Below are positions 380 to 20,442 of a stretch of 32,890 nt of DNA, piece by piece (position 1 is the stretch's first letter; every line of letters starts with the position of its first letter). The notes under the pieces were generated by a model. It saw only the letters and a list, made by a program, of their open reading frames with translations. It did not search any database and had not been told where the DNA came from. The position numbers were made by a program, and so were the translations under genes. Source of the stretch: Campylobacterales bacterium (GTDB lineage: Bacteria; Campylobacterota; Campylobacteria; Campylobacterales; QNZT01); NCBI GenBank assembly GCA_027056215.1, contig JALULO010000143.1:1-32890 (forward strand), written 5' to 3'.

Positions 380-1201
380 ATGGTTATCAAACGCGTTATA
401 CTTCCACTAGCATTGTTTATCTATATTGCCATAGAAACATATTTAAAACTACATCAAAGTTCACTTTGTGACCAAACTGGATGTAAACTTGCCGGAGAAT
501 TATTGCGATTTAAGCCCATATATCTAAACTATTTAGGTCTTTTTGCTACATCTATACTGATACTTACGGGGTGGCTTTCTAAAAAATCACACTTAGCCGA
601 TAGACTTTTTTGGATCACGCTCATGGGTGCACTTGCATTTGAAGCGACTATGATCGGTTATCAATACTTTGCAAATCCAGCACTGTGTCTATTTTGTCTA
701 GGTGTTTTTAGCGGACTGCTTTTGATTACGCTCTTTAATGCACCGAAAAAAATATTATTTGCCATTGTACCGATAGTGGCTATCTTTACGGCACTTTCAA
801 CACTTTCCATCGCAAAAAACCAAAGTTTCATAACAAAAGATGGGAACTATCTTATCTATTCAGCAACGTGTCCACATTGTCAAAAAGTTAAAAAGTTCCT
901 TGCCTCAGAAGATATCAACTACACACCTCTTCCCATCACCGAACCCTCAACCCAAAAAGCAATCAAATATCTAGGCATTAGCAAAATACCGATTTGGATA
1001 CAAAAGCATGGTGTAAACAGAGTTATTTTCGTTGGTGATAAAGCGATCATCACACATCTAAAAACTAAGCCCAAGGATACGGCACAAGAGACATCTCAAA
1101 AAGATGAAAATCCTGCTTCAACACAAAGCGTTTTTAATCTCAATACCGATACAGGTTGTAGTGCATCGGTAATCGAAGAAGTTAAATGTAAAGATGAGTG
1201 A
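380..1201 (+). CDS. VKOR-like membrane protein fused to a C-terminal thioredoxin/glutaredoxin-fold domain
   Basis: Several TM helices, SLCDQTGCKLAGELL cysteine pair, a CLFC motif in a TM region, then YLIYSATCPHCQKVKKFL (CPHC) typical of a Trx/Grx active site. Confidence 0.65.
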   Translation: MVIKRVILPLALFIYIAIETYLKLHQSSLCDQTGCKLAGELLRFKPIYLNYLGLFATSILILTGWLSKKSHLADRLFWITLMGALAFEATMIGYQYFANPALCLFCLGVFSGLLLITLFNAPKKILFAIVPIVAIFTALSTLSIAKNQSFITKDGNYLIYSATCPHCQKVKKFLASEDINYTPLPITEPSTQKAIKYLGISKIPIWIQKHGVNRVIFVGDKAIITHLKTKPKDTAQETSQKDENPASTQSVFNLNTDTGCSASVIEEVKCKDE

Positions 1202-1291
1202 CAACTATATAAATTTTTTCTTTTCATACTTCAGGCATTTTTTAAAATGCCGATATGTAGCACATAATAAGAAAACTATTCGAACAGGGTT

Positions 1292-3187
1292 ATGATGAAA
1301 AAACAACAAGAAAATGAAATATATAATAATTTAAAATCACTTTTTCGTCTGTTCCTTGCTAGCCTCATTATCATTGGCGGACTCAATTATATATTTAGTA
1401 AAATGATTAATGATCTTAATCAACAAACTAAAAATCTTGAAACAAAAAAATTGATTGAAAGTAAAATTGCGACTACTTTAACAAGTATGCGCGAAGATAT
1501 TTCTGATATCTTTATTTTAAAACCAAGTGAACAACATAAACATTATTTTAAATATAAAATTTATGAGAAACTAAGCCGTGTTAAATTGGATCTTCACATT
1601 CTAAAATCTGGGGCAGTATTTAAAATAGGAGATGATCTCCAAACCAGGATATATAGACCAAAAACATATGGTCAACAATATGAAAATTTTAATAATTTAG
1701 CACTTTCAGATATGGAACAATCTATAAAATTATTTTTTCTTGCACTTCAAGATTTTAAAGAAAAACTTCTTATCGATAAAAATGCATATATATCTGACCT
1801 AAATTATCTCCTCAAAGAGATGCAAAAGAACAATAATACACTTTTAAAACAAACTAATTACCATATTAAGAAAGTCAACGATGATATCAACAGAAAAACA
1901 CAACAATATATAGGATATGAACTCCTTGCCATAATCTTTGTCATAGCTTCACTCTTTTATCTTAGCAATATTATCAGTAAGCAAATCATCAATAATAGTA
2001 AAAAACTAGAATCAGCAAAAAAAGAAGCGCAAAAAATGGCACTTAAAGCTAAACAAGCCAGTTTAGCAAAGTCTGAATTTTTAGCAAATATGTCCCATGA
2101 GATACGAACACCCCTAAATGCCATACTTGGCTTTATCGATCTTTTAAAAGAGAAAGAAAGAGATGAGGAAAAATTAAAATACATTAAAACTGTACAAAAT
2201 TCATCAAATTCTCTTTTAGGTATTATCAATGATATTCTTGATTTTAGTAAGATTGAAAGTGGCAATCTGCAAATAGAAGAAATCAATTTTAACACTTTAG
2301 ATGAATTTGATACCCTAGCAGATCTTTTTCGTGCAAAAGCATCTGAAAAAAGTATTTCACTCACAATGCATATGGATCAAAATATGCCAAGTGCTTTGGT
2401 CAGTGACCCATTGAGAATCAAACAAGTTATAGCAAACCTTCTTTCCAATGCGATCAAATTTACACCACGAAACGGTCGTGTCATATTACATATATCTTAT
2501 AGTAATGCACATTTAAACGTCAGTGTTCAAGATACGGGTATTGGTATAGCAGAAGAGAAACAAGAAAAAATCTTTCAAGCATTCTCTCAGGCTGAAAGTT
2601 CAACAACCAGACAATTTGGTGGTACAGGATTGGGTCTCTCTATCTCATCAAGATTGATCACTATGCTCGGTGGTAAATTAAAGCTACAAAGTAAGCCCAA
2701 AGAAGGTAGCAAATTTTATTTTTCTATTCCTGTAAAAGCTGGAACTTTTACACACCATAATGTAAAACATGATTTAGACGATTTATCCCTTGAAGGAAGG
2801 CATGTTCTGGTTGTAGAAGACAATAAAGCCAACCAAATGTACATGAGTTTATTGCTGAAAAAATTTCATATCACATTTGACATCGCAAATGACGGTGTCG
2901 AGGCGATATTGGCTTTTGAGCACAAAAAATTTGATTTAATTTTGATGGATGAAAATATGCCTAATCTTAACGGTATAGAAGCTACCAAAAGAATTTTAGC
3001 GATAGAAAAGAAGAAAAACCTTATCCATACTCCCGTTATTGCTTTAACGGCAAATGCATTAAGTGGGGATCGTGAACGTTTTATAGAAGCAGGGATGGAT
3101 GAGTATTTAACAAAACCTATAAATAAAGAGAAACTATTAACTGTTTTTAAAGAATTTATGAGTAACAAGGAGAGTACCGTATGTTAG
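1292..3187 (+). CDS. Hybrid sensor histidine kinase (TM sensor, HisKA, HATPase_c, REC)
   Basis: Two TM segments around a ~190 aa sensor region; H-box FLANMSHEIRTPLNAILGF; N-box LLSNAIKFTP; G-boxes DTGIGIAEE and GGTGLGLSIS; C-terminal REC with VVEDNKANQ and LILMDENMP. Confidence 0.95.
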   Translation: MMKKQQENEIYNNLKSLFRLFLASLIIIGGLNYIFSKMINDLNQQTKNLETKKLIESKIATTLTSMREDISDIFILKPSEQHKHYFKYKIYEKLSRVKLDLHILKSGAVFKIGDDLQTRIYRPKTYGQQYENFNNLALSDMEQSIKLFFLALQDFKEKLLIDKNAYISDLNYLLKEMQKNNNTLLKQTNYHIKKVNDDINRKTQQYIGYELLAIIFVIASLFYLSNIISKQIINNSKKLESAKKEAQKMALKAKQASLAKSEFLANMSHEIRTPLNAILGFIDLLKEKERDEEKLKYIKTVQNSSNSLLGIINDILDFSKIESGNLQIEEINFNTLDEFDTLADLFRAKASEKSISLTMHMDQNMPSALVSDPLRIKQVIANLLSNAIKFTPRNGRVILHISYSNAHLNVSVQDTGIGIAEEKQEKIFQAFSQAESSTTRQFGGTGLGLSISSRLITMLGGKLKLQSKPKEGSKFYFSIPVKAGTFTHHNVKHDLDDLSLEGRHVLVVEDNKANQMYMSLLLKKFHITFDIANDGVEAILAFEHKKFDLILMDENMPNLNGIEATKRILAIEKKKNLIHTPVIALTANALSGDRERFIEAGMDEYLTKPINKEKLLTVFKEFMSNKESTVC

Positions 3188-3501
3188 ACATATCAAAAAT
3201 TTCACAAGAACTTGGATTTGAGCGTGAGGAAGTCTTGATGCTTTTAGAAATGTTTATGGAATCAGCTATGCAAAGTATGCAAGAACTCAAAATAGCTTTA
3301 GAAAATGCAGATTATATCGGCATAAAAGAACACGCCCATGCTATCAAAGGAAGCTCTGCAAATCTCATGTTAGATGAGATTTATAACTTATCTAAAGAGA
3401 TAGAAGAAGCAGCCATATTTAAAACAAAACTTGATTATGGTGACAAGTTTACAAGACTCTATCATGCTTTAAAAAATTTACAGAAAATGGAAACAGCATA
3501 A
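3181..3501 (+). CDS. Hpt domain phosphotransfer protein
   Basis: HAHAIKGSSANLMLDEI matches the Hpt motif HxLKGSSxxLG. Its start overlaps the kinase stop and its stop overlaps the next ATG. Confidence 0.9.
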   Translation: MLDISKISQELGFEREEVLMLLEMFMESAMQSMQELKIALENADYIGIKEHAHAIKGSSANLMLDEIYNLSKEIEEAAIFKTKLDYGDKFTRLYHALKNLQKMETA

Positions 3502-5159
3502 TGGCAAAGATACTTATAGTAGATGATATTGCAGTCAATCGCATGACAATCAAACTCTCTTTAAAAGAGCAAGGATATCACTTTTTTGAAGCGTCAAATG
3601 GTCTTGAAGCAATAGAAATAGCAAAAGCACAGAATCCAGATATCATACTCATCGATGCGATGATGCCAGTTATGGATGGTTTTGAAGCAACAAAAGTTAT
3701 ACGTAAGATTGAGGAGATACAGCGTATTCCAATCTTGATGATTACCTCGTTGGAAAGCAAAGATGATAAAATCAAAGCCCTTAATTGTGGTGTTAATGAC
3801 TTTATCAGTAAAGCATTTGACAAATCAGAACTAAAAGCGAGATGCCATGCCTATATAGAATTGGCAAATTTAAATAAAAACTATATTTTAGCGACAAAAA
3901 ATGTAGTTTCCAACTTGCCAAATAAAGTGAAATTACTCAAAGATATACAACATACTAAAAATGAAAAATCACTATTTTTAATCGATATGGACAATTATAC
4001 TGAAAATGAAAATTTTTATGGTCTGAGTATTGCTGAAAATCTAGAAAAAATTTTTATCCAATATTTGATCCAACAGTGTCTAATTTTACACGATCACTAT
4101 CAACTTTATCATATAGCAAGTGGGAAATATGCTGTTCTTTTTGATGATACTTTTGATCAAAGTGACGATAATGCTGAAACATTCTGTGCAAATCTCATTT
4201 CAGCCATCAAACATCATCATTTTCAATACCAAGACTATAACTTTGATATAAATATCACTATGGGCTATATGTATGGAAATGAGCATCTTTATGAAGATGC
4301 CAATACGATGCTTGCTCTCGCACAAAAAGAAAAATATGAGTTCATGGTAAATACTAAAAGGATTACTACTTTAAAAGAAAACATCAAACAAAATCTTTTT
4401 ACATTGCAAAGTATTAAATATGCATTACAAGAAGATAAAATAGAGCCATTTTTTCAACCTATATATAACAATCATACAGACAAAATCAAACGATATGAAG
4501 CCCTTATAAGGATGCATGATCATAAAAACACTCTTATTTATCCTTATCCTGTATTTTTAGATGTTGCAAAACAGGGAAAACTCTATCCTTATATTACAAA
4601 AGTTTTGATTGAAAAAGTTATGGATAAACTTAGAGAAGAAGATTGTGAAATATCTATCAATATCTCATCGCTAGATATTGAAGATAAAATCATGCAAGCC
4701 TTTATACTTGATGCTTTTGAGAAAAATAAAGATATAACACATAAACTCATCATTGAACTTTTAGAAGATAAAGAAACAAATTCTTACGATGAAGTCAATA
4801 AGTTTATCAAAACAGTTAGAAAATATGGTATACAAATAGCCATAGATGACTTTGGAAGCGGTTATTCAAACTTTATACGTATTATCGAGTTTGCTCCAGA
4901 TATCATCAAAATAGATGGATCACTTATTTGCGACATTGCGACATCAGCAGCATCAAGACAAACAGTTGAAACAATCAAACTTTTTGCTGATAAGATCAAT
5001 GCTAAAATAGTAGCAGAATATGTTGAGAATGAAGAAATATTCAATATCATCAAATCACTTGGAATAGACTATGCACAAGGTTTTTATATCGGTAAAGCAG
5101 AACTCAAACTCAGAAAAACACCTCTCTTTGAAGAAGCTTTAGCAACAGTGGCTCACTAA
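3501..5159 (+). CDS. Response regulator: REC, degenerate GGDEF, EAL phosphodiesterase
   Basis: REC: ILIVDDIAVNR, IILIDAMMPVMDG. GGDEF position reads ASGKYAVL. EAL hallmarks kept: YEALIRM, SINISSLDIED, IELLED, IDDFGSGYSNF, IIKIDGSL, AEYVENEE. Confidence 0.93.
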   Translation: MAKILIVDDIAVNRMTIKLSLKEQGYHFFEASNGLEAIEIAKAQNPDIILIDAMMPVMDGFEATKVIRKIEEIQRIPILMITSLESKDDKIKALNCGVNDFISKAFDKSELKARCHAYIELANLNKNYILATKNVVSNLPNKVKLLKDIQHTKNEKSLFLIDMDNYTENENFYGLSIAENLEKIFIQYLIQQCLILHDHYQLYHIASGKYAVLFDDTFDQSDDNAETFCANLISAIKHHHFQYQDYNFDINITMGYMYGNEHLYEDANTMLALAQKEKYEFMVNTKRITTLKENIKQNLFTLQSIKYALQEDKIEPFFQPIYNNHTDKIKRYEALIRMHDHKNTLIYPYPVFLDVAKQGKLYPYITKVLIEKVMDKLREEDCEISINISSLDIEDKIMQAFILDAFEKNKDITHKLIIELLEDKETNSYDEVNKFIKTVRKYGIQIAIDDFGSGYSNFIRIIEFAPDIIKIDGSLICDIATSAASRQTVETIKLFADKINAKIVAEYVENEEIFNIIKSLGIDYAQGFYIGKAELKLRKTPLFEEALATVAH

Positions 5160-5942
5160 ATCCTTCATCTGTGTACAAAAGTGAATCACTGTTTCATTGT
5201 GATGCTTTTGTGCCCCTTTGGTTAAGATAGTGAGCTTATTTTCCATCATTTTACATACTTCTCTATCTGGAAGATGTTTTTGCAATGCTTGTAAACGAAA
5301 CTGATCCATCGCTTGATAAGAAAATGAAAGTTGTTCATGATCACCTGCATATTTTGTCGTAAGTGCTTCATCAACAAATCCTACAGGATACTTTTTTAAA
5401 ATCCTAAGCCACATATCATAATCTTCACAAACAATCAACTTCTCATCGAAAAGTCCAATATCATCCACTATCTTTTTATGAAACATGACCGTTGAAGGAG
5501 CAATCTTACAAAAATCAAGATTTTCATAAAAACAAAAGCCTTGCGGTTTTTGATGTTTACGTTTTTGTTTAACCATCTTATCATCACGCATCCAGACTTC
5601 TGCGGTATGAGAAAAAAGAATCTGGGGATTTTGTTTGTGATATGCCACTTGAAGTTGGAGTTTATCTTCTCTCCAAACATCATCAGAGTCCAAAAAGGCA
5701 ATCCACTTGTTTGATGCATGAACAATACCCATATTCCTTGCAGCCGAAACGCCTTTATTTGGCTGAGAGATGATTTTAACTTCAGGAAAATGGCTCTGTA
5801 CCATCTGGCATGTATCGTCTGTTGAACCATCATCCACAACAATGATTTCATCAGCCCTGTAAGTCTGACTTAAAACAGACTCCACCGCCCTTGGTAAAAG
5901 CGCAACACGGTTATACGTGGGAATGACAACGGTAATTTTCAC
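5139..5942 (-). CDS. Family 2 glycosyltransferase
   Basis: N-terminus MKITVVIPTYNRVALLPRAVESVLSQTYRADEIIVVDDGSTDDT, and WIAFLDSDDVW: the GT-A/GT2 fold signature. Confidence 0.93.
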   Translation of the reverse strand: MKITVVIPTYNRVALLPRAVESVLSQTYRADEIIVVDDGSTDDTCQMVQSHFPEVKIISQPNKGVSAARNMGIVHASNKWIAFLDSDDVWREDKLQLQVAYHKQNPQILFSHTAEVWMRDDKMVKQKRKHQKPQGFCFYENLDFCKIAPSTVMFHKKIVDDIGLFDEKLIVCEDYDMWLRILKKYPVGFVDEALTTKYAGDHEQLSFSYQAMDQFRLQALQKHLPDREVCKMMENKLTILTKGAQKHHNETVIHFCTQMKDLVSHCC

Positions 5943-6500
5943 TTATTTTTTAGTAACTTTTGAAAAATACAACCACAACAAGGCGATTAGTGTTACCAGT
6001 ATCAGCGGTAAGATCCATGGATTTTCTTTAATCTTTCCAAAGAGATCAACAATTTGCTGTCCTCCTTTATAACTCAACAATCCAAAAAAGAGTGAAAAAA
6101 GAAGTGAAGCTGGTGCATTTAAAATCCCAAATTTGAGAAAACTATATTTAGATAATCCCATCGCAATAGGTACTAAAGTTTTAACACCATAGATAAACTT
6201 TTGTACAAACATGACTAAATCACCATATTTTCTGATCAAAAGAGATGAAAGTGCAAATTTTCGTCTGTGATTTTTCATGTAAGGCTCTACCATCTGTTTG
6301 TTATAACGTGCCATATAAAATAAAACCATATCACCAATATAGTTTGCAACCGTTGCCACAGCGATAGAAACAGTGATATCCATCTTACCAAGATAGGATA
6401 ATGCTCCAGCAGCTACAAGTCCGAAAAAACCACCCCCAAGGGAGTATATAAATAGGGCTATATAACCATACGTAGACAATTGTGTTAAAAGTTCTTGCAT
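5943..6500 (-). CDS. DedA/SNARE-associated family membrane protein
   Basis: Multi-TM protein of DedA length with GALSYLGKMDI and a KFIYGVKTLVPIAMG segment resembling DedA F-x-R-x-x-P-G. Confidence 0.75.
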   Translation of the reverse strand: MQELLTQLSTYGYIALFIYSLGGGFFGLVAAGALSYLGKMDITVSIAVATVANYIGDMVLFYMARYNKQMVEPYMKNHRRKFALSSLLIRKYGDLVMFVQKFIYGVKTLVPIAMGLSKYSFLKFGILNAPASLLFSLFFGLLSYKGGQQIVDLFGKIKENPWILPLILVTLIALLWLYFSKVTKK

Positions 6501-8281
6501 TAATCCTCTTTCTTGTTTGAAAATGTTGTAGCGAAATGTCCTTCATTTGCCATCAAAGTGCCAAGTGTACCTTCTTGAATAATATGTCCATGTTCGAGAA
6601 CATAGATATAATCGGCCATCTTGATTGTACTTAATCTGTGTGCGATTATTATAGTAGTTCTTTCTTTTAAAAAGGATTCTATCGCATCAAAAAGGATATC
6701 TTCTGTGGTAACATCAAGGGCAGATGTCGATTCATCCAAAATCACAACATTTGGATCAGCGATAATCATGCGAGCGATGGAGATACGTTGTCGCTGACCA
6801 CCTGAGAGTTTGATACCGTTTTTCCCAACAAGCGTTTGTAATCCATCATCAAGCGTTGCTAAAAAATCTCCAAGCTGTGCAACTTCAAGTGCTTTTTGAA
6901 TCTTCTCATCACTCACTTCTTTACCAAAAGTGAGATTAAAGTGAATCGTGTCATTGAAAAGCATAGGATTTTGCAATACCAGATAGACATGATCTCGTAT
7001 CACATCAAGTCCTATATCTTTAAAAGAGACTTTGTCATACATGATATCTCCGTGATCGGGCTGATAAAAACCAACTATCAGTTGTGCAAGTGTCGTTTTT
7101 CCACTCCCACTTGCCCCAACAATCGCCACTTTACTTTTTTGTGGAATATGTAAAGAGATCATATCTAAAATATTTTTACCTTTTTGATACGCAAAAGAGA
7201 CATCTTTGAGGTCGATCTCATTGGTACACGTTTGGCTAAAAGGATTTTTCAGATGTTTGTAAGAAGGTTCTTTTTCAAGATCAAAAATCGCATTGATACG
7301 TTTGAGTGCTGCATCGGCATTGTGGTAAGCATACTGCATATTGATAATCTCATTGATTGGCTGCATAATAACCCACAAATAACCAAAGATAGCAAGCATC
7401 AAACCAATAGATAAATCAGAATATGCAACCATCAAAATACCAGCGGCTCGAAATATTTCAAACCCTGTTAAAAAAATCATATAAGAAGCTTTTGACGCAA
7501 CTTCTGCCTTGTATTCAAACGCGATACCACGCTCTTTAATCTCTTTTGCTAGCACTACTAACTTCGTAAAAAAATGTACCTCACTGTTTGACGAACGTAC
7601 TTGCCAAAACAGATCGAGTGTCTCACTTAATGCTTCTTGAAACGAGGCGATAATAGCATTTTCTTTCTTTTTCAGTTTTGAAACTTTTCGTGCCATTTTA
7701 CCCGTTAAAAAAACAATAAAAGGATTAAAAAAGAGAATGAAAAGTGCCAATTTCCAATGAATCCATAAAAGAATAACAGCAACTGCAATCACCATCAATA
7801 CAGAGATAACAAGCTTACTTACAGAACTAGAGATAAAGGCATCAATCGTATTAACATCTACAATACTTAAAGAAGCAAGTTTTCCACTACCAAAATTTTC
7901 AAACTCTTTTAAACGTACTTTTTCAATATGTTTAAGTAAATCTTCACGAATTTTATACGTTATATTCTTAGAGATGATCGTAAAGAACCAACTTTGAATG
8001 ACACTAAATATAAAAAACAGCGCACGCAAGAGAAGTGTTATAATTAGAACCACTACAACGTAAAACCAAGCAGCGTGTTGTGAACCACCAAAAAGTGTAT
8101 CGATTATATGGACAAGATGCGAAGGTTTATGCAAAAGCACTTCATCCACTAAAAGAGGCATCAAAAGCGGGGCTAAGGCACTAGCTGTAGCGGCAAATAT
8201 TGCAATAATATTTGCGATAAAAAGCTCTTTTTTATATTTTCTGATATCTTTAAAAATATCAGAAAAAGTATATTTTTGCAT
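6500..8281 (-). CDS. ABC transporter, fused permease/ATP-binding (MsbA-like exporter)
   Basis: N-terminal six-TM-like region; Walker A GASGSGKTT; Q-loop LVLQNP; signature LSGGQRQRISIAR; Walker B NVVILDESTSALD. Confidence 0.95.
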   Translation of the reverse strand: MQKYTFSDIFKDIRKYKKELFIANIIAIFAATASALAPLLMPLLVDEVLLHKPSHLVHIIDTLFGGSQHAAWFYVVVVLIITLLLRALFFIFSVIQSWFFTIISKNITYKIREDLLKHIEKVRLKEFENFGSGKLASLSIVDVNTIDAFISSSVSKLVISVLMVIAVAVILLWIHWKLALFILFFNPFIVFLTGKMARKVSKLKKKENAIIASFQEALSETLDLFWQVRSSNSEVHFFTKLVVLAKEIKERGIAFEYKAEVASKASYMIFLTGFEIFRAAGILMVAYSDLSIGLMLAIFGYLWVIMQPINEIINMQYAYHNADAALKRINAIFDLEKEPSYKHLKNPFSQTCTNEIDLKDVSFAYQKGKNILDMISLHIPQKSKVAIVGASGSGKTTLAQLIVGFYQPDHGDIMYDKVSFKDIGLDVIRDHVYLVLQNPMLFNDTIHFNLTFGKEVSDEKIQKALEVAQLGDFLATLDDGLQTLVGKNGIKLSGGQRQRISIARMIIADPNVVILDESTSALDVTTEDILFDAIESFLKERTTIIIAHRLSTIKMADYIYVLEHGHIIQEGTLGTLMANEGHFATTFSNKKED

Positions 8282-8294
8282 AATCTAAACTAAG

Positions 8295-9863
8295 TTATCT
8301 GGCGTAATCTACAGCACGCGACTCTCTGATAACATTGACTTTGATATCTCCTGGATACTGTACTTTACTCTCAATCTCTTTAGCAATCTCTTTGGAAAGA
8401 AGCACCGCTTCATCATCATTGATAAGCTTTGCATTAGCAATAACACGGATTTCACGACCAGCATTGATTGCATATGCTTGTCGTACACCTTTTTTACTGG
8501 TTGCAATATTTTCGATATCTTCTACACGTTTTAAAAAGGCTTCCAAAACTTCACGTCTAGCCCCTGGACGGGCAGCTGAAAGCGTATCAGCAGCACAAAC
8601 CGCAGCAGATTCAATCGAATTTGCATCTTCGTGTCCATGGTGTGCATAAATCGCATTGATGACTACTTCGTGTTCATTGTAACGTTTACAGATGTCCGCT
8701 CCAAGATCTACATGACTTCCTGCAAAATCATGGGTTAATGCTTTACCGATATCATGCAGTATTCCCGCACGACGGGCAAGTTTCTCATCACCACCACATT
8801 CAGCAGCGATAATCCCTGCAAGATTGGCAACTTCTAAAGAGTGCCCAAGTGCATTTTGTCCATATGAAGCACGAAATTTTAACTTACCGATAAGTTTAAT
8901 AATTTCTGGATGCATACCTGTGATACCAAAATCAAGTAAGATATTTTCACCCTCTTCATAAATATTTTGCTCAAACTCTTCGGTTACTTTTTTATAGATA
9001 TCTTCAATTCGTGCTGGTTGAATACGACCATCTTCTATCAACTCTTCTATCACTTTTGTAGCAATAGCACGACGATAAAGATTAAAACTGCTGAGTATAA
9101 TCACATTTGGCGTATCATCTATGATCACATCAACCCCTAATTTCATCTCTAAGGCTTTGATATTTCGTCCCTCTTTTCCGATGATTCGTCCTTTGATATC
9201 ATCGCTTGGGAGGTTGACCGTATTGATCAGTCTTTCAGCTGCAAAATCACCGGCAAAGCGTGTTGTAGCCTGTGCAAGGATATAATTTGCATTCTTTTTA
9301 CCTTTATCTTTTGCCTCTTGTTCATATTTTCGGATGATATGTGCAATCTGTGCACGCGCATGATCTTCTGCCCGTTTAAGTACGATATCTTGTGCTTCAG
9401 ACTTTGTCATACCTGCTGATCTTTCAATCAACATATCTGCATCTTCCAACTTGATTTTTAGTTCAGTTTCAAGTGTTTTTATCTCTTCTTCAAAACTTTT
9501 TAATTCATTTTTATGTTTTTTAATTTCATCTTTCTCAAAAGTGATATTTTTCAACTCTTCTTTAAAAAGTTCATTTAACTCTTGGTCTTTTTTCTCAAGC
9601 GTAGCAAGCTTCTGTGAATGTTCTTCAAAAAGCTTTTGCTTTTTCGTATCAAAAGCCTGTTTTGCTTCAAGTTCTAGATCTTTGGCTTTGATTTTCGCCT
9701 CATTTAGCAACTTTTCTGCTTCATGCTCGATCGTACTAGCTTTTGCTTTTGCCTGTTCTAAAAAACCGCTTAGTTTTGCATTATGTAATCTATTTGCACT
9801 AAATGCGGCGATACTACCACCTAGAAGTGCTCCTCCAGCTGCAATGATTATTTCTGTTATCAT
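8295..9863 (-). CDS. rny: Ribonuclease Y
   Basis: N-terminal TM, long coiled coil, KH domain (IIGKEGRNIKALE), HD domain (ILHDIGKALTHD). Classic RNase Y architecture, 522 aa. Confidence 0.97.
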   Translation of the reverse strand: MITEIIIAAGGALLGGSIAAFSANRLHNAKLSGFLEQAKAKASTIEHEAEKLLNEAKIKAKDLELEAKQAFDTKKQKLFEEHSQKLATLEKKDQELNELFKEELKNITFEKDEIKKHKNELKSFEEEIKTLETELKIKLEDADMLIERSAGMTKSEAQDIVLKRAEDHARAQIAHIIRKYEQEAKDKGKKNANYILAQATTRFAGDFAAERLINTVNLPSDDIKGRIIGKEGRNIKALEMKLGVDVIIDDTPNVIILSSFNLYRRAIATKVIEELIEDGRIQPARIEDIYKKVTEEFEQNIYEEGENILLDFGITGMHPEIIKLIGKLKFRASYGQNALGHSLEVANLAGIIAAECGGDEKLARRAGILHDIGKALTHDFAGSHVDLGADICKRYNEHEVVINAIYAHHGHEDANSIESAAVCAADTLSAARPGARREVLEAFLKRVEDIENIATSKKGVRQAYAINAGREIRVIANAKLINDDEAVLLSKEIAKEIESKVQYPGDIKVNVIRESRAVDYAR

Positions 9864-15513: not shown

Positions 15514-16968
15514 TTATCTCCTTTTGTTATGATTTCGATTTCTATCACCGCCACGACTATCACCATCACGTCTACGTTTATTATGACCTCTATTGTTGTA
15601 ACCACGATTACGACTTTTGCCTCTTTTTTTGCCATCATCATTTTTAAATCGTTCAAAAAGACGTTCTACCTCAGCACTGTTCATGCCTATCTTATCGGAT
15701 CCAGCAATGTCGTTTGCGCTATACATTAAAGAAGCTAGTTTAAGTGCTATATCTTCATCAACAAACTCTTTTTTCAAATCATCTACAAAATCTCTAGCAA
15801 GATCACTGATCTCTTGTTTAGCTACTTTATCCAGCATCGAACTTTTTTGACGCATTTGAACATCTGCAATATTAGGAATCACTTTTGATTCAAGCTGACT
15901 TCCAACATTTTTTTGAATCTTTTTCAAAGAGTTAAATTCATGCGGTGTTACAATCGAGATTGCAAGTCCATCTTTACCCGCACGTCCGGTTCTACCGATA
16001 CGATGAACATAACTTTCAGAGTCAAATGGTATATGATAGTTAAAAACATGGGTAACATTTTGAACATCTAAACCACGCGCTGCCACATCTGTTGCAATCA
16101 AAATCTCAAGATCATTACGTTTAAATGCACGGATTACCTCTTCTCTTTGACGCTGTTCCATATCTCCGTGTAAACCTTTGGCAGAATACCCTTTTGAAGA
16201 AAGAAATGTACTCAAACGATCTACCTCTCTTTTGGTACGACAAAAGACGATTGATTTATCAGGATTTTTAAAATCCATCAAACGAATCAAAGCATCATCT
16301 CTCTCACTTTCTTTAACAACATAATAATTTTGCTTGATATTAACATTGGTTACCTCATTTTTGGTGATGGTTACAAACTCTGGTCGGTAAAGAATCGTTT
16401 TAGAAAGTTCTCTGATAGCAGGAGGCATAGTCGCTGAGAACATAAGTGTTTGGCGTGGTGCATCAAAATAGGTAAAAATCTCTTTGATATCATCTAAAAA
16501 TCCCATATCCAGCATCTCATCAGCTTCATCTAAAACAACAAATTTTGGTTCGATGTTGATTTGACCATTGCTCAAAAGATCTAAAAAACGCCCTGGTGTT
16601 GCAACAACTACCGCTGCATTTTTAACATGTTTGATCTGTCTTGTGTAAGAACTTCCACCATATACTGTGGCAGTATTGATTCCAAGATACTTACCAAAAC
16701 GAAAAATTTCATCACTTACTTGTGTCGCTAACTCTCTAGTTGGCACAATTACAACTGCTTCGACACCGCCATCCAGTGAAAGCATATTTAAAATCGGTAA
16801 ACCAAACGCTGCTGTTTTACCCGTTCCTGTATGCGCTTGTGCTACGATATCTTTTCCCTCTAAAACGATAGGCATCGCTTCTTTCTGTACAGGACTAGGC
16901 TCTTTAAAGCCAGCATCATCAATCGCCTTTTGCAATTGATCTTTAAAGTTAAATTCTTTAAATGTCAT
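15514..16968 (-). CDS. DEAD-box ATP-dependent RNA helicase
   Basis: Q motif, AHTGTGKTAAFGLPIL, PTRELATQV, VLDEADEMLDMGF, FSATMP, HRIGRTGRAGKDG, and an RG/N-rich basic C-terminal tail. Confidence 0.97.
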   Translation of the reverse strand: MTFKEFNFKDQLQKAIDDAGFKEPSPVQKEAMPIVLEGKDIVAQAHTGTGKTAAFGLPILNMLSLDGGVEAVVIVPTRELATQVSDEIFRFGKYLGINTATVYGGSSYTRQIKHVKNAAVVVATPGRFLDLLSNGQINIEPKFVVLDEADEMLDMGFLDDIKEIFTYFDAPRQTLMFSATMPPAIRELSKTILYRPEFVTITKNEVTNVNIKQNYYVVKESERDDALIRLMDFKNPDKSIVFCRTKREVDRLSTFLSSKGYSAKGLHGDMEQRQREEVIRAFKRNDLEILIATDVAARGLDVQNVTHVFNYHIPFDSESYVHRIGRTGRAGKDGLAISIVTPHEFNSLKKIQKNVGSQLESKVIPNIADVQMRQKSSMLDKVAKQEISDLARDFVDDLKKEFVDEDIALKLASLMYSANDIAGSDKIGMNSAEVERLFERFKNDDGKKRGKSRNRGYNNRGHNKRRRDGDSRGGDRNRNHNKRR

Positions 16969-17225
16969 TCATTCTCATTTCATGTTTGATACTGTGATAA
17001 ATCATATTATTTTACAATTGTTAACGTGTTTTATCGCTTTTGCATACACAAATATTTTGCTCTATAGTTCGTATCAAGTTTATATTTTTAATCTCATCTA
17101 AAACACTTAAGTATCCCAGATAGTTAAAAAAGAACCTAGGAAATGTATGCTGTATCTTAGAAGGTGCGCGATTATATCTAAATTTTTATGAAATTCATAC
17201 TAATTTAATCTTAATTTTTAAATTA

Positions 17226-18689
17226 TTATTTTTGAAAGACTTTTTTAAATGAAAACCTATTTTTACTTCGTAATAACGCCAGCTTCTCTTTACACTCTAA
17301 ATAGTATTGACCATTAGGGAAATGGTACAAATACGATTCATAGGCTGCGATTGTATTATGTTCACAAGCTTCATACCATACTTTATTATCATGCACTTTT
17401 ACATGTTGTTCACGAATGATAGTATCTATCATTTTGATCGCTTCTTGTTGAAATAGACCACTAGGATAGCTACTAAGATAATTTTCAAAAGATTCTTTGG
17501 TATGCTGCATTTTAGCTTTCATCCAAAACATAGTCTCTTTTTCAATAGCTTGTCGTACAGTGAGTATACCTTTGTAAGAGGGATCATCTAAATTGTGTAA
17601 ATATGATAGCGAATCGGGTACGGAGGTCAGATTGTTTTTATCAATCAGTAAGACTTTTAAGGTATGCATATTTCCTATGCTCTCTGGTAAACTTATGAGC
17701 TTATTGTTACCCACGTCTAACTTAACCAAATGTTGCAATTGGCTGATATTTTGAGGCAATGTTGAGAGTCGATTCCATCGAGCCACTAATAATTCAAGAT
17801 TTTCAAACTCTTCGATCCATGAAGGTAACTGCGTCAACGAATTTCCCAAAAGTGTCAATCTTTTAAGAGATTTCAATCCTCTTAGTGACTCAGGCAAATG
17901 ATCAAAAGCATTATAGCTGATATTTAAACTCTCCAACTGTGTTAAATTTCCTATAGAATCAGGTAATTGACTCAAAGCATTATTGTCTATTGTCAACTCT
18001 TTAAGATCAGATAGGTTTCCAATCCATTCAGGTAATTTTTTCAATGGATTATTGCTAATTTTTAACTTCTTTATAGAGGTAAGATTCTGCATCCACATAG
18101 GTAAAGTATCAAGATTGTTGTTACTAATATATAATGCATCTAGGTTTTTGAGATTTTCTATCGTCGAGGGGAAAAATATCAATCTATTATTACTGATATA
18201 AAACTCTTTTAAATTTATAAGTTTACTCATCGATTGGGGTATATTTCTTAATTTATTGGAGCCAAGATCAAGCTTTGTCAATTTCTCTAAATCACCAATC
18301 CACTCAGGTAACTGTGACAATGTGTTCTTATAAAGACTAAGTTCTTCTAAGTTTTCTAAGTTTTGAATCCATGTAGGTACAACTTCTAGCATATTTGAAC
18401 CCAAATCAAGAGAAATCAGGTTTTTTAACTCCCCTAAGACTTCCGGCAAATAAGTTAATTCACAATTAGATAAATCTAACTTTTTAAGCGTTCCGAGTGC
18501 ATATAAATCCCTTGGTAAACGTCTCTCTGCTATATGATGTTTATCTGCCCAGATCATTAACTGTTTGATATTATTAGAAATTGTGGCAGGTGTTGATTTA
18601 TGAGAAAGTACCTTTTGAATATTATCAAGATATACATCATAATTGTCAAACCTTTCTAATAACTGAATATATGTTTTTTCAATTGTCAT
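17226..18689 (-). CDS. Cytoplasmic leucine-rich-repeat protein, 487 aa, with two C-terminal YLxxYPxG repeats
   Basis: Thirteen contiguous 23-aa repeats of LxxLxLxxNxLxxLPxxIxxLxx; no signal peptide; C-terminal pair FENYLSSYPSGLFQQEA / YESYLYHFPNGQYYLEC. Confidence 0.93.
   Translation of the reverse strand: MTIEKTYIQLLERFDNYDVYLDNIQKVLSHKSTPATISNNIKQLMIWADKHHIAERRLPRDLYALGTLKKLDLSNCELTYLPEVLGELKNLISLDLGSNMLEVVPTWIQNLENLEELSLYKNTLSQLPEWIGDLEKLTKLDLGSNKLRNIPQSMSKLINLKEFYISNNRLIFFPSTIENLKNLDALYISNNNLDTLPMWMQNLTSIKKLKISNNPLKKLPEWIGNLSDLKELTIDNNALSQLPDSIGNLTQLESLNISYNAFDHLPESLRGLKSLKRLTLLGNSLTQLPSWIEEFENLELLVARWNRLSTLPQNISQLQHLVKLDVGNNKLISLPESIGNMHTLKVLLIDKNNLTSVPDSLSYLHNLDDPSYKGILTVRQAIEKETMFWMKAKMQHTKESFENYLSSYPSGLFQQEAIKMIDTIIREQHVKVHDNKVWYEACEHNTIAAYESYLYHFPNGQYYLECKEKLALLRSKNRFSFKKVFQK
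17592..18488 (-). repeat. 13 x 69 bp coding LRR array (protein-level repeat)
   Basis: Residues 68-366 split exactly into 13 units of 23 aa, from LKKLDLSNCELTYLPEVLGELKN to LKVLLIDKNNLTSVPDSLSYLHN. Confidence 0.9.
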
Positions 18690-19472
18690 TTACACATCCT
18701 CTGTCATAGGTTCTTTTAATGCAATCTTCTCAGATTGGTATTGCATCTTTTTTGTTAAATCTTTGACTATGCTCTCTTTATTGTCATTAACATATTCAAA
18801 ACGATACTGGCGAGTACTCTCATAAAAAGAAAATAATGTTTCAGAGAAAATAGCTTCTGTTTTTCTAAATCGTATGGCTGGAAATCTATGCATAAAATAT
18901 TGTACTACATTAGGTTGTGTTTCGATCATCTCCTCTGATGCAAAAACAATTGTATAAAACCCCGCATCATAAGCAGCATCAAAAAACTCTTTCATTCTTT
19001 TTGTCAAAGAGCTATCTTCCGGAAAATGATCCAGATGTATAAGCAGTAAATCGTATGGCTCTTTTTGCTCTGTATTTTGATTGTATTGACTGAGGGTTTT
19101 TTGATCCGAAGATAAAAGATCATGATAACGATGTAAAAGTGTTTTTTCAAGCTTGTTAAAATCCAAAATCGCATCTTCTAACGTCAAAGAGATATGATAC
19201 ACATCGTGCTCTTTAAATTCTGAAAGATAGGCAAAACGTTTTTTATAACTAAAATCAAATACATGCATATTTAATCCTGTATCAGAGGTGACTTCGCATA
19301 ATTTCAAAGCAACATTTTCTATAAAATTATTTGCATCAGACTCACTTTGTTCATCAAAGATTACACTAAATCCGCCTTTATTTGCCGATAATAGTAATGG
19401 TAATGCTATATGATCATCTAATAAATCACCAATATAAATACCCCATGGGAATGCATACTTCTTTTCTGCCAT
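18690..19472 (-). CDS. Uncharacterised protein, possible degenerate FtsK/SpoIIIE-type P-loop fold, partner of the LRR protein
   Basis: Stop codon abuts the LRR ATG. Start reassigned from TTG 19481 to ATG 19472: AAGGAG is about 11 nt before the ATG but only about 2 nt before the TTG. Sequence resembles the FtsK family layout but lacks GxxxxGK[ST]. Confidence 0.8.
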   Translation of the reverse strand: MAEKKYAFPWGIYIGDLLDDHIALPLLLSANKGGFSVIFDEQSESDANNFIENVALKLCEVTSDTGLNMHVFDFSYKKRFAYLSEFKEHDVYHISLTLEDAILDFNKLEKTLLHRYHDLLSSDQKTLSQYNQNTEQKEPYDLLLIHLDHFPEDSSLTKRMKEFFDAAYDAGFYTIVFASEEMIETQPNVVQYFMHRFPAIRFRKTEAIFSETLFSFYESTRQYRFEYVNDNKESIVKDLTKKMQYQSEKIALKEPMTEDV

Positions 19473-19554: not shown

Positions 19555-20442
19555 CTAATGGGTTAAAAGATCTTTAAGACTTTGTTGTACATCTTTTCCT
19601 TCTAAGATAAGATAAATTTCTTGTGCGATTGGTGTATATATCTTCTCTTTTTGGACAATATTGTAAACAGCTTTAGTGGTATACACACCCTCTGCTACTT
19701 CACCAAGCTCTTCTAAGATTGTATCGAGATCTTTATGCGCCGCCAAACCAAGTCCAACTCTGTAGTTTCTTGACAGTACACTTGTTGCTGTCAAAAAAAG
19801 ATCACCTGCACCACTTAAACCCAAAAAAGTATCTTTTTTTGCACCAAAATGTGCACCAAAACGTGTCATCTCAACCAAGCCTCTGGCAATAAGCGAAGCT
19901 CTGGCATTGTTTCCAAGTTGCAAGCCATCACAAATACCACTGGCTATGGCTATAATATTTTTGTAGGCACCACTGATCTCCGCACCTACGGTATCAGAAG
20001 AAACGTAACTTTTTATAAAAGAGGGAAAAAAAGTTGCATATTGGTCTGCAAGTGTCTTATTTCCAGAACTAACCACTATAGCTGTTGGCAAAGATTGTAT
20101 CACCTCGGCAGCAAAAGAAGGGCCTGAAACAAACGCAAGATTTTCACGGGGGATAAACTCTTCAAAAACTTCATTTAAAAATTTTCCTGTAGCAATCTCT
20201 ATACCTTTTGATGCGATCAAAAACTTTTGCCCTGTAAATTGCAGTTGCTGTTCCAACCAAACTCTGGCATTTTGTGCTGATATCGCAAATACCAGATACT
20301 CAAGCTTTTGAATCTCCTCCATAGAAATAAAATTTGGCAATGCTTTTGTATGTCGTGAACTATAATAAACTTCATGATTTTGGCTAAATGCAAAGCCCAA
20401 AGCTTGCCCCCATTTTCCTGCACCGATTATACCTATCTTCAT
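19555..20442 (-). CDS. gpsA: NAD(P)H-dependent glycerol-3-phosphate dehydrogenase
   Basis: MKIGIIGAGKWGQALGFAFS; SGPSFAAEV; GAEISGAYKNIIAIASGICDGLQLGNNARASLIARGL; GLSGAGDLFLTATSVLSRNYRVG. Confidence 0.97.
   Translation of the reverse strand: MKIGIIGAGKWGQALGFAFSQNHEVYYSSRHTKALPNFISMEEIQKLEYLVFAISAQNARVWLEQQLQFTGQKFLIASKGIEIATGKFLNEVFEEFIPRENLAFVSGPSFAAEVIQSLPTAIVVSSGNKTLADQYATFFPSFIKSYVSSDTVGAEISGAYKNIIAIASGICDGLQLGNNARASLIARGLVEMTRFGAHFGAKKDTFLGLSGAGDLFLTATSVLSRNYRVGLGLAAHKDLDTILEELGEVAEGVYTTKAVYNIVQKEKIYTPIAQEIYLILEGKDVQQSLKDLLTH

What the first reader, a model, noticed from the sequence alone, without database searches (positions are those of the whole stretch)
17226..19472. Two-gene unit: LRR protein plus degenerate FtsK-like NTPase-fold partner, inserted between gpsA and a DEAD-box helicase gene
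Seen: the partner's TAA is immediately followed by the LRR ATG, so the two are almost certainly co-translated. Both are intracellular by sequence and neither looks like a housekeeping gene, while all neighbours do. Established: NLR-type sensors combine a P-loop NTPase with repeat sensors such as LRRs. Inference: this could be a split sensor/NTPase-like module for signalling, scaffolding or defence. I know of no named two-gene system with this arrangement, but that is not proof of novelty.
Basis: partly seen in the sequence, partly recalled or inferred. Interest (0 to 1): 0.7.

Follow-up and report, generated by a model that had tools for sequence, protein, structure and literature searches.

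The report
Motorless FtsK-like and LRR protein pair
Two co-translated bacterial genes, a dead ATPase domain and a leucine-rich-repeat protein, turn out to be a stripped-down offshoot of a larger modular locus related to the type VII secretion / WXG100 machinery, in which one conserved ATPase is paired with interchangeable binding proteins.

Summary
The two genes are real, abut exactly (TAA-ATG) and sit as an insertion between gpsA and a DEAD-box gene that lie 0.2-0.4 kb apart in five relatives. The partner has the FtsK fold (AlphaFold pTM 0.85; top PDB matches EssC, EccC, FtsK) but has lost the Walker A lysine in all 23 sequences aligned, so it is a pseudo-ATPase. The pair is conserved: abutting in one sister genome, fused into one 717-aa protein in another, and fused in a more distant family.

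In a second family of the same order the same pseudo-domain is N-terminal to an active EssC/EccC-like motor. It is followed, with 4-base overlaps, by a variable second gene (LRR, WG repeat, Lcl_C or other) sharing a short N-terminal motif, then often toxin-antitoxin genes, then two WXG100-like hairpin proteins. The window genome has no second motor, and another contig holds a 62-aa scar of such an operon. So the window pair is a motorless derivative of a compact variant of the known 'mobile type VII' FtsK-WXG100 loci.

Best guess: the pseudo-ATPase is a docking platform for the LRR binding protein. The NLR-like split-NTPase idea is not supported. Function is untested.

The parts
18690..19472 (-). 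gene 1: pseudo-FtsK (EssC/EccC-like) domain protein, 260 aa
   Evidence: ORF; AF2 pTM 0.85; Foldseek EssC 5fv0 E 4e-8; 23-sequence alignment
19332..19358 (-). former Walker A site, residues 39-47 FDEQSESDA (no GxxGxGK[S/T])
   Evidence: hhalign against the family's own active domain GVTGSGKT; no lysine at this place in the 23 aligned sequences
19023..19049 (-). former Walker B strand, residues 142-150 LLLIHLDHF; acidic pair DE lost
   Evidence: alignment with EssC D2 'VALDNF'; position not conserved in the family
17226..18689 (-). gene 2: LRR protein, 487 aa
   Evidence: ORF abutting gene 1; Pfam LRR
18585..18689 (-). N-terminal motif 'Y..LL..fD.Yd.YL' (residues 1-35) shared by gene-2 proteins of the full operons
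   Evidence: alignment of 9; model from 7 other gene-2 N-termini ranks this protein first after its training set, E 2e-4
17592..18488 (-). 13 x 23-residue leucine-rich repeats
17265..17543 (-). C-terminal W..A..Y..YL..P.G helical repeats, also found in gene 2 of the G444 and G560 operons and in the G135 fusion
   Evidence: residues 381-473 match the G444 WG-repeat protein, E 7e-13; 383-470 match G560, E 4e-8; 355-475 match G135, E 2e-12

Best explanation
The pair is a motorless derivative of a compact FtsK-WXG100 locus. In the parent form one protein carries an inactive N-terminal EssC-like domain and an active FtsK motor; a coupled second gene carries a short conserved N-terminal segment plus a variable binding domain; two WXG100-like helical hairpins close the operon. 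In the window lineage the motor and hairpins are gone. Most likely mechanism: the pseudo-ATPase domain is a docking platform that holds gene 2 through its conserved N-terminal segment, and the LRR domain binds a target protein. The pair would thus act as a cytoplasmic binding or adaptor module (target recognition, sequestration or immunity) without using ATP. Shown: fold, loss of the ATP site, coupling/fusion, kinship with the fuller locus, no second motor detected. Inferred: docking through the N-terminal segment, protein ligand, biological role.
For: EssC/EccC/FtsK fold; lost Walker A. Abutting pair in G001, one-ORF fusions in G007 and G135. Full operons with pseudo + active domain, motor closest to YukB/EccC (E 6e-23), gene 2 of several kinds overlapping gene 1, mostly by 4 bases, two mutually similar hairpins, the last one similar to a Helicobacter WXG100-size protein near an FtsK gene (E 4e-5 in a set of five). 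Shared gene-2 N-motif and helical repeats. G000, G001, G007 and G135 have only the housekeeping FtsK above cut-off. Scar of the operon in the window's own genome. In EssC, D2/D3 are thought to specialise in cargo interaction (PMC4925161).
Against: No interaction data; the AF2 model of the natural fusion gives no confident packing of the LRR on the pseudo-domain (pTM 0.58, linker pLDDT below 50). The N-motif is short and its score in G001 is marginal (0.058). Motorless copies sit on long branches, which also fits loss of constraint. A related pseudo-domain subfamily exists without any gene 2.
Confidence: 0.5

Rival explanations
1. Orphan immunity or interference module: kept after loss of the parent locus because the pseudo-domain/LRR pair blocks incoming related FtsK-WXG100 elements or their toxins (dominant-negative subunit or LRR immunity protein).
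For: The pseudo-domain alone is a conserved gene in one clade (13 solo sequences) under purifying selection (dN/dS 0.07-0.15); scar of a full operon in the window genome; LRR immunity proteins (Imm-LRR) are known in polymorphic toxin systems (PMC3482391).
Confidence: 0.18
2. Decaying remnant of the full locus without function.
For: Motor and hairpins lost; a sister operon reduced to a 62-aa scar; long branches of motorless copies.
Against: Both ORFs intact with all 13 LRRs; coupling kept; the same motorless state persists in G000, G001, G007 and G135, twice as an intact fusion.
Confidence: 0.14
3. NLR-like split sensor/NTPase defence module.
For: LRR plus P-loop-fold partner; accessory location; related operons carry toxin-antitoxin genes.
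Against: No Walker A in the partner; fold family is FtsK/EssC, not STAND; no PADLOC match.
Confidence: 0.08
4. The LRR protein is an exported effector and the pseudo-FtsK its chaperone or targeting factor.
For: Parent loci resemble a minimal type VII system with WXG100-like proteins; an N-terminal segment shared by otherwise different gene-2 proteins is what a targeting signal would look like.
Against: No membrane ATPase, channel or signal peptide seen in the full operons or the window; effector-family matches (XopAC, XopL) are far below cut-off and only reflect the LRR.
Confidence: 0.1

Closest known systems
Mobile/minimal T7SS-like loci: EssC(YueA)-like FtsK ATPase with solo WXG100 proteins (PMC3482391; CoCoNuT-associated form in PMC11090510; HP0062/HP0066 'WXG100 secretion system' of Helicobacter pylori in PMC4978471 and PMC3397514)
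   Same: Cytoplasmic FtsK protein with an inactive domain before the active one, WXG100-like hairpins, accessory/mobile distribution including epsilonproteobacteria
   Different: Published form has three ATPase domains with only the middle one active; the related loci here have two (inactive-active) plus a variable gene 2 (LRR, WG, Lcl_C), and the window has only the inactive domain and the LRR protein
EssC/EccC of type VII secretion (domains D2/D3)
   Same: Fold; degenerate domain next to an active one; EssC D2 also lacks the catalytic glutamate of Walker B (PMC4925161)
   Different: No transmembrane helices, no FHA domains, order of domains differs, Walker A also lost
STAND/NLR and bacterial Avs-type sensors (from memory)
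   Same: Repeat-type binding domain together with a P-loop-fold domain
   Different: Partner is FtsK-class and lacks the P-loop needed to bind ATP; separate genes in the window

Membership tests
FtsK/EssC-like (FtsK-HerA) fold domain | RecA-like core matching FtsK/EssC structures | tested here: met
   Foldseek top matches 5fv0, 4lya, 9jv8, 4nh0, 6t8g; profile hit to 5fv0 E 0.002
FtsK/EssC-like (FtsK-HerA) fold domain | active Walker A and Walker B | tested here: not met
   Lost in the window partner and its aligned relatives
Mobile FtsK-WXG100 (minimal T7SS) locus | EssC-like ATPase with an active domain | tested here: not met
   Absent beside the window pair; only the housekeeping FtsK over cut-off in G000 (genome 82% complete). 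Met in related operons G427, G444
Mobile FtsK-WXG100 (minimal T7SS) locus | solo WXG100 protein(s) | tested here: not met
   Window genome holds only a 33-residue remnant fused to a gene-1 N-terminus. WXG100-like pair present in related full operons
Mobile FtsK-WXG100 (minimal T7SS) locus | three ATPase domains, only the middle one active | tested here: not met
   Related full operons have two domains, inactive-active; the pseudo-domain aligns with the inactive N-terminal domain of three-domain proteins (hhalign E 1e-4), not with their C-terminal one (0.14)
Type VII secretion system proper | membrane-anchored EccC/EssC and translocon partners | tested here: not met
   No hydrophobic segment in the pair; no such genes around it
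STAND/NLR sensor | STAND NTPase with intact P-loop, fused to repeats | tested here: not met
Known anti-phage systems (PADLOC) | match to a defence model | tested here: not met
   0 families for both proteins
Anti-phage defence | protection against phage | not testable with these tools
   needs an experiment

The most novel reading that the evidence does not exclude
The parent loci are a modular conflict system on one chassis (pseudo-FtsK + FtsK motor + WXG100-like pair) in which both a recognition gene (LRR, WG, Lcl_C, others behind a common docking segment) and a toxin slot (AbiEii-type, PIN-type, MNT-type genes between gene 2 and the hairpins) are exchanged, and the window pair is a motorless recognition module split off from it.
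Probability: 0.2. Interest if true: 0.8.

Novelty: new variant of a known kind. Interest (0 to 1): 0.6.

Why it matters
FtsK-WXG100 loci outside Gram-positive bacteria, including the widely conserved HP0062/HP0066 cluster of Helicobacter pylori, have no established function in the papers read here. A family in which the inactive ATPase domain survives alone, next to or fused with an LRR protein, says that this domain has a job of its own (most simply, holding a partner) and gives a minimal two-protein version in which that job can be tested. The swap of LRR, WG and Lcl_C domains behind a common N-terminal segment points to recognition of changing targets.

Tried and rejected
Pfam, NCBIfam, PADLOC and PHROGs gave nothing for the partner. 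Viral contigs and plasmids hold no relative of the partner at the sensitivity used. NCBIfam effector matches of the LRR protein (XopAC, XopL) rejected: far under the curated cut-off, LRR only. LRR hits in G002 and G015 looked like unpaired gene 2 but are a different LRR family beside nif-type genes; G017 is a large surface-type protein. Weak partner-profile hits in many genomes, and G119, look like the housekeeping FtsK (only G119 was read). PDB hits of the hairpin profile A6 to coronavirus spikes and of A8 to designed repeat proteins are taken as coiled-coil/helical chance matches. The fusion model gave no usable arrangement of the two domains. No clear target-site repeat was found at the pair's ends.

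Full report
Observation. The neighbours are gpsA (19555-20442, -) and a DEAD-box helicase (15514-16968, -). In G004, G006, G007, G010 and G014 these neighbours are directly adjacent, 173-372 bases apart, in the same order with TrkA and THDPS genes around. So the pair is an accessory insertion in the window's lineage. G007 has its own copy elsewhere, so the unit has moved or been gained more than once. The insertion lies upstream of a promoter/leader region of the DEAD-box gene that is conserved in G004, G006 and G007, and it leaves that region intact.

What the partner is. No family library knows it. A profile of three relatives already touched T7SS ATPase chains EccC/EssC (E 0.04); with 23 sequences E is 0.002. 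AlphaFold2 gives a confident model (pLDDT 85, pTM 0.85), and Foldseek against the PDB returns EssC 5fv0 (4e-8), 4lya, EccCb1 D2, EccC 4nh0 and FtsK 6t8g near the top; an FtsK-like phage protein tops the viral library. It is an FtsK/EssC-type domain. Aligned to the active domain of its own relatives, the P-loop GVTGSGKT falls on FDEQSESDA, and no aligned relative has the lysine. The Walker B strand is kept but the acidic pair is not conserved. EssC D2 itself departs from the canonical Walker B (PMC4925161). So the partner is a pseudo-ATPase.

The pair is conserved. In G001 the two genes abut in the same way (256 + 490 aa; 36% and 43% identity). In G007 they are one ORF of 717 aa (read from an internal ATG), and in G135, of another family, one ORF of 613 aa with fewer LRRs. 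No true gene-2 relative was found apart from a gene 1 in the genomes searched. In the phylum and order samples (397 and 399 genomes) the full-length domain was found only in two families.

The fuller locus. In family f6 (30 of 175 genomes with the domain) three states exist. (a) Full operons (G427, G444, G560 and G572, with broken or incomplete copies in G575, G547 and G538): gene 1 is pseudo-domain plus active FtsK domain (GxTGxGK[T/S], DE). The active domain of G427 is closest in the PDB to YukB and EccC (E 6e-23) and hits Pfam FtsK_SpoIIIE. Gene 2 follows with an overlap of 4 bases in G427, G444, G560 and G572, 8 bases in G538, a 2-base gap in G575:C56. Then come, in several copies, toxin-antitoxin-like genes (AbiEii by Pfam in G427; near-identical genes in G444 and G560; PIN-, antitoxin- and MNT-like genes in G575, G538 and G537 judged by eye only). 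The operon ends with two small helical proteins, which detect each other. The last one is similar to an 89-aa WXG100-like protein encoded near an FtsK gene on a Helicobacter plasmid. (b) A motorless fusion (G135). (c) A solo 264-aa pseudo-domain gene, one clade of 13 sampled sequences (100/100), dN/dS 0.07-0.15, with no gene 2.

Gene 2 is modular. Its later part differs: LRR (G560, G575:C56, G538), WG repeats (G444), Lcl_C (G427), a probable membrane protein (G575:C27), a short protein (G572). All share an N-terminal segment 'Y..LL..(f/v)ds.Y..Y'. A model of this segment from the seven f6 proteins, run on the first 60 residues of 406 proteins, puts the window LRR protein first after its own training set (E 2e-4) and the G001 LRR protein second (0.058). 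The W..A..Y..YL helical repeats after the window's LRRs are also in the G444 gene 2 (E 7e-13), in G560 and in the G135 fusion. So the window LRR protein is a gene-2 protein, not a chance neighbour.

Loss of the motor. G000, G001, G007 and G135 each have one FtsK domain over the Pfam cut-off, the housekeeping one; G427 and G444 have a second, in the operon. G000 is 82% complete, so absence there is not proven. On contig C183 of the window's genome a 62-aa ORF joins the first ~33 residues of gene 1 to the last ~33 of the terminal hairpin: it looks like the scar of an internally deleted full operon.

Known kind. Zhang et al. [quoted passage not shown] The CoCoNuT paper (PMC11090510) describes the same beside type III-A CoCoNuTs. 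PMC4978471 lists a WXG100 secretion cluster and names HP0062 and HP0066 as the widely conserved paralogues in H. pylori. A Caballeronia plasmid shows such an ATPase with WXG100, VWA, CARF, kinase and phosphatase genes. The window's pseudo-domain aligns with the inactive N-terminal domain of these proteins (E 1.4e-4) and with their active domain (1e-4), not with their C-terminal domain (0.14). The f6 operons are thus a compact two-domain variant with a polymorphic gene 2, and the window pair is a motorless derivative.

How it may work. Shown: fold, dead ATP site, coupling and fusion, shared gene-2 segment, no second motor detected. Inferred: the pseudo-domain holds gene 2 by its N-terminal segment, as EssC/EccC D2 and D3 are thought to interact with cargo (PMC4925161), and the LRR binds a protein. 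In the fusion model the region between the two domains is poorly predicted, which suits a flexible tether rather than a rigid NLR-like unit, though low confidence is not proof of disorder. What the LRR recognises, and whether the outcome is defence, immunity against related elements, or something else, is open.

Noticed in passing
window 17093-17184 (-): Leader of the DEAD-box helicase gene is conserved in G004, G006 and G007 (TATAAT-like box, CTTCTAAGATACAGC, CTATCTGGGATACTTAAGTGTTTTAGATGA); no Rfam family matches. Possibly a regulatory leader.
   Followed up: partly
G000:C183:5211-5399 (L008): 62-aa ORF joining the N-terminus of a gene-1 pseudo-FtsK to the C-terminus of the operon's last hairpin protein; MNT/HEPN-like pair downstream.
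   Followed up: yes
L083 (G537:C90) 2066-5251: Solo pseudo-FtsK gene divergent from a run of three TerD-like genes and a TerB-like gene (by eye).
   Followed up: no
L124 (Helicobacter sp. NHP19-012 plasmid) 641-9614: FtsK-WXG100 locus with Hsp70-like, HNH endonuclease and SMI1/KNR4 genes, reminiscent of a toxin-immunity cassette.
   Followed up: partly
L105 (G002) 1880-3382 and L106 (G015) 2659-4137: A different LRR protein family in a conserved cluster beside nif-type genes.
   Followed up: no
L067 9946-11313 and L070 6244-7569: A gene for an archaeal-type ATPase (by eye) follows the hairpin genes in two different full operons.
   Followed up: no
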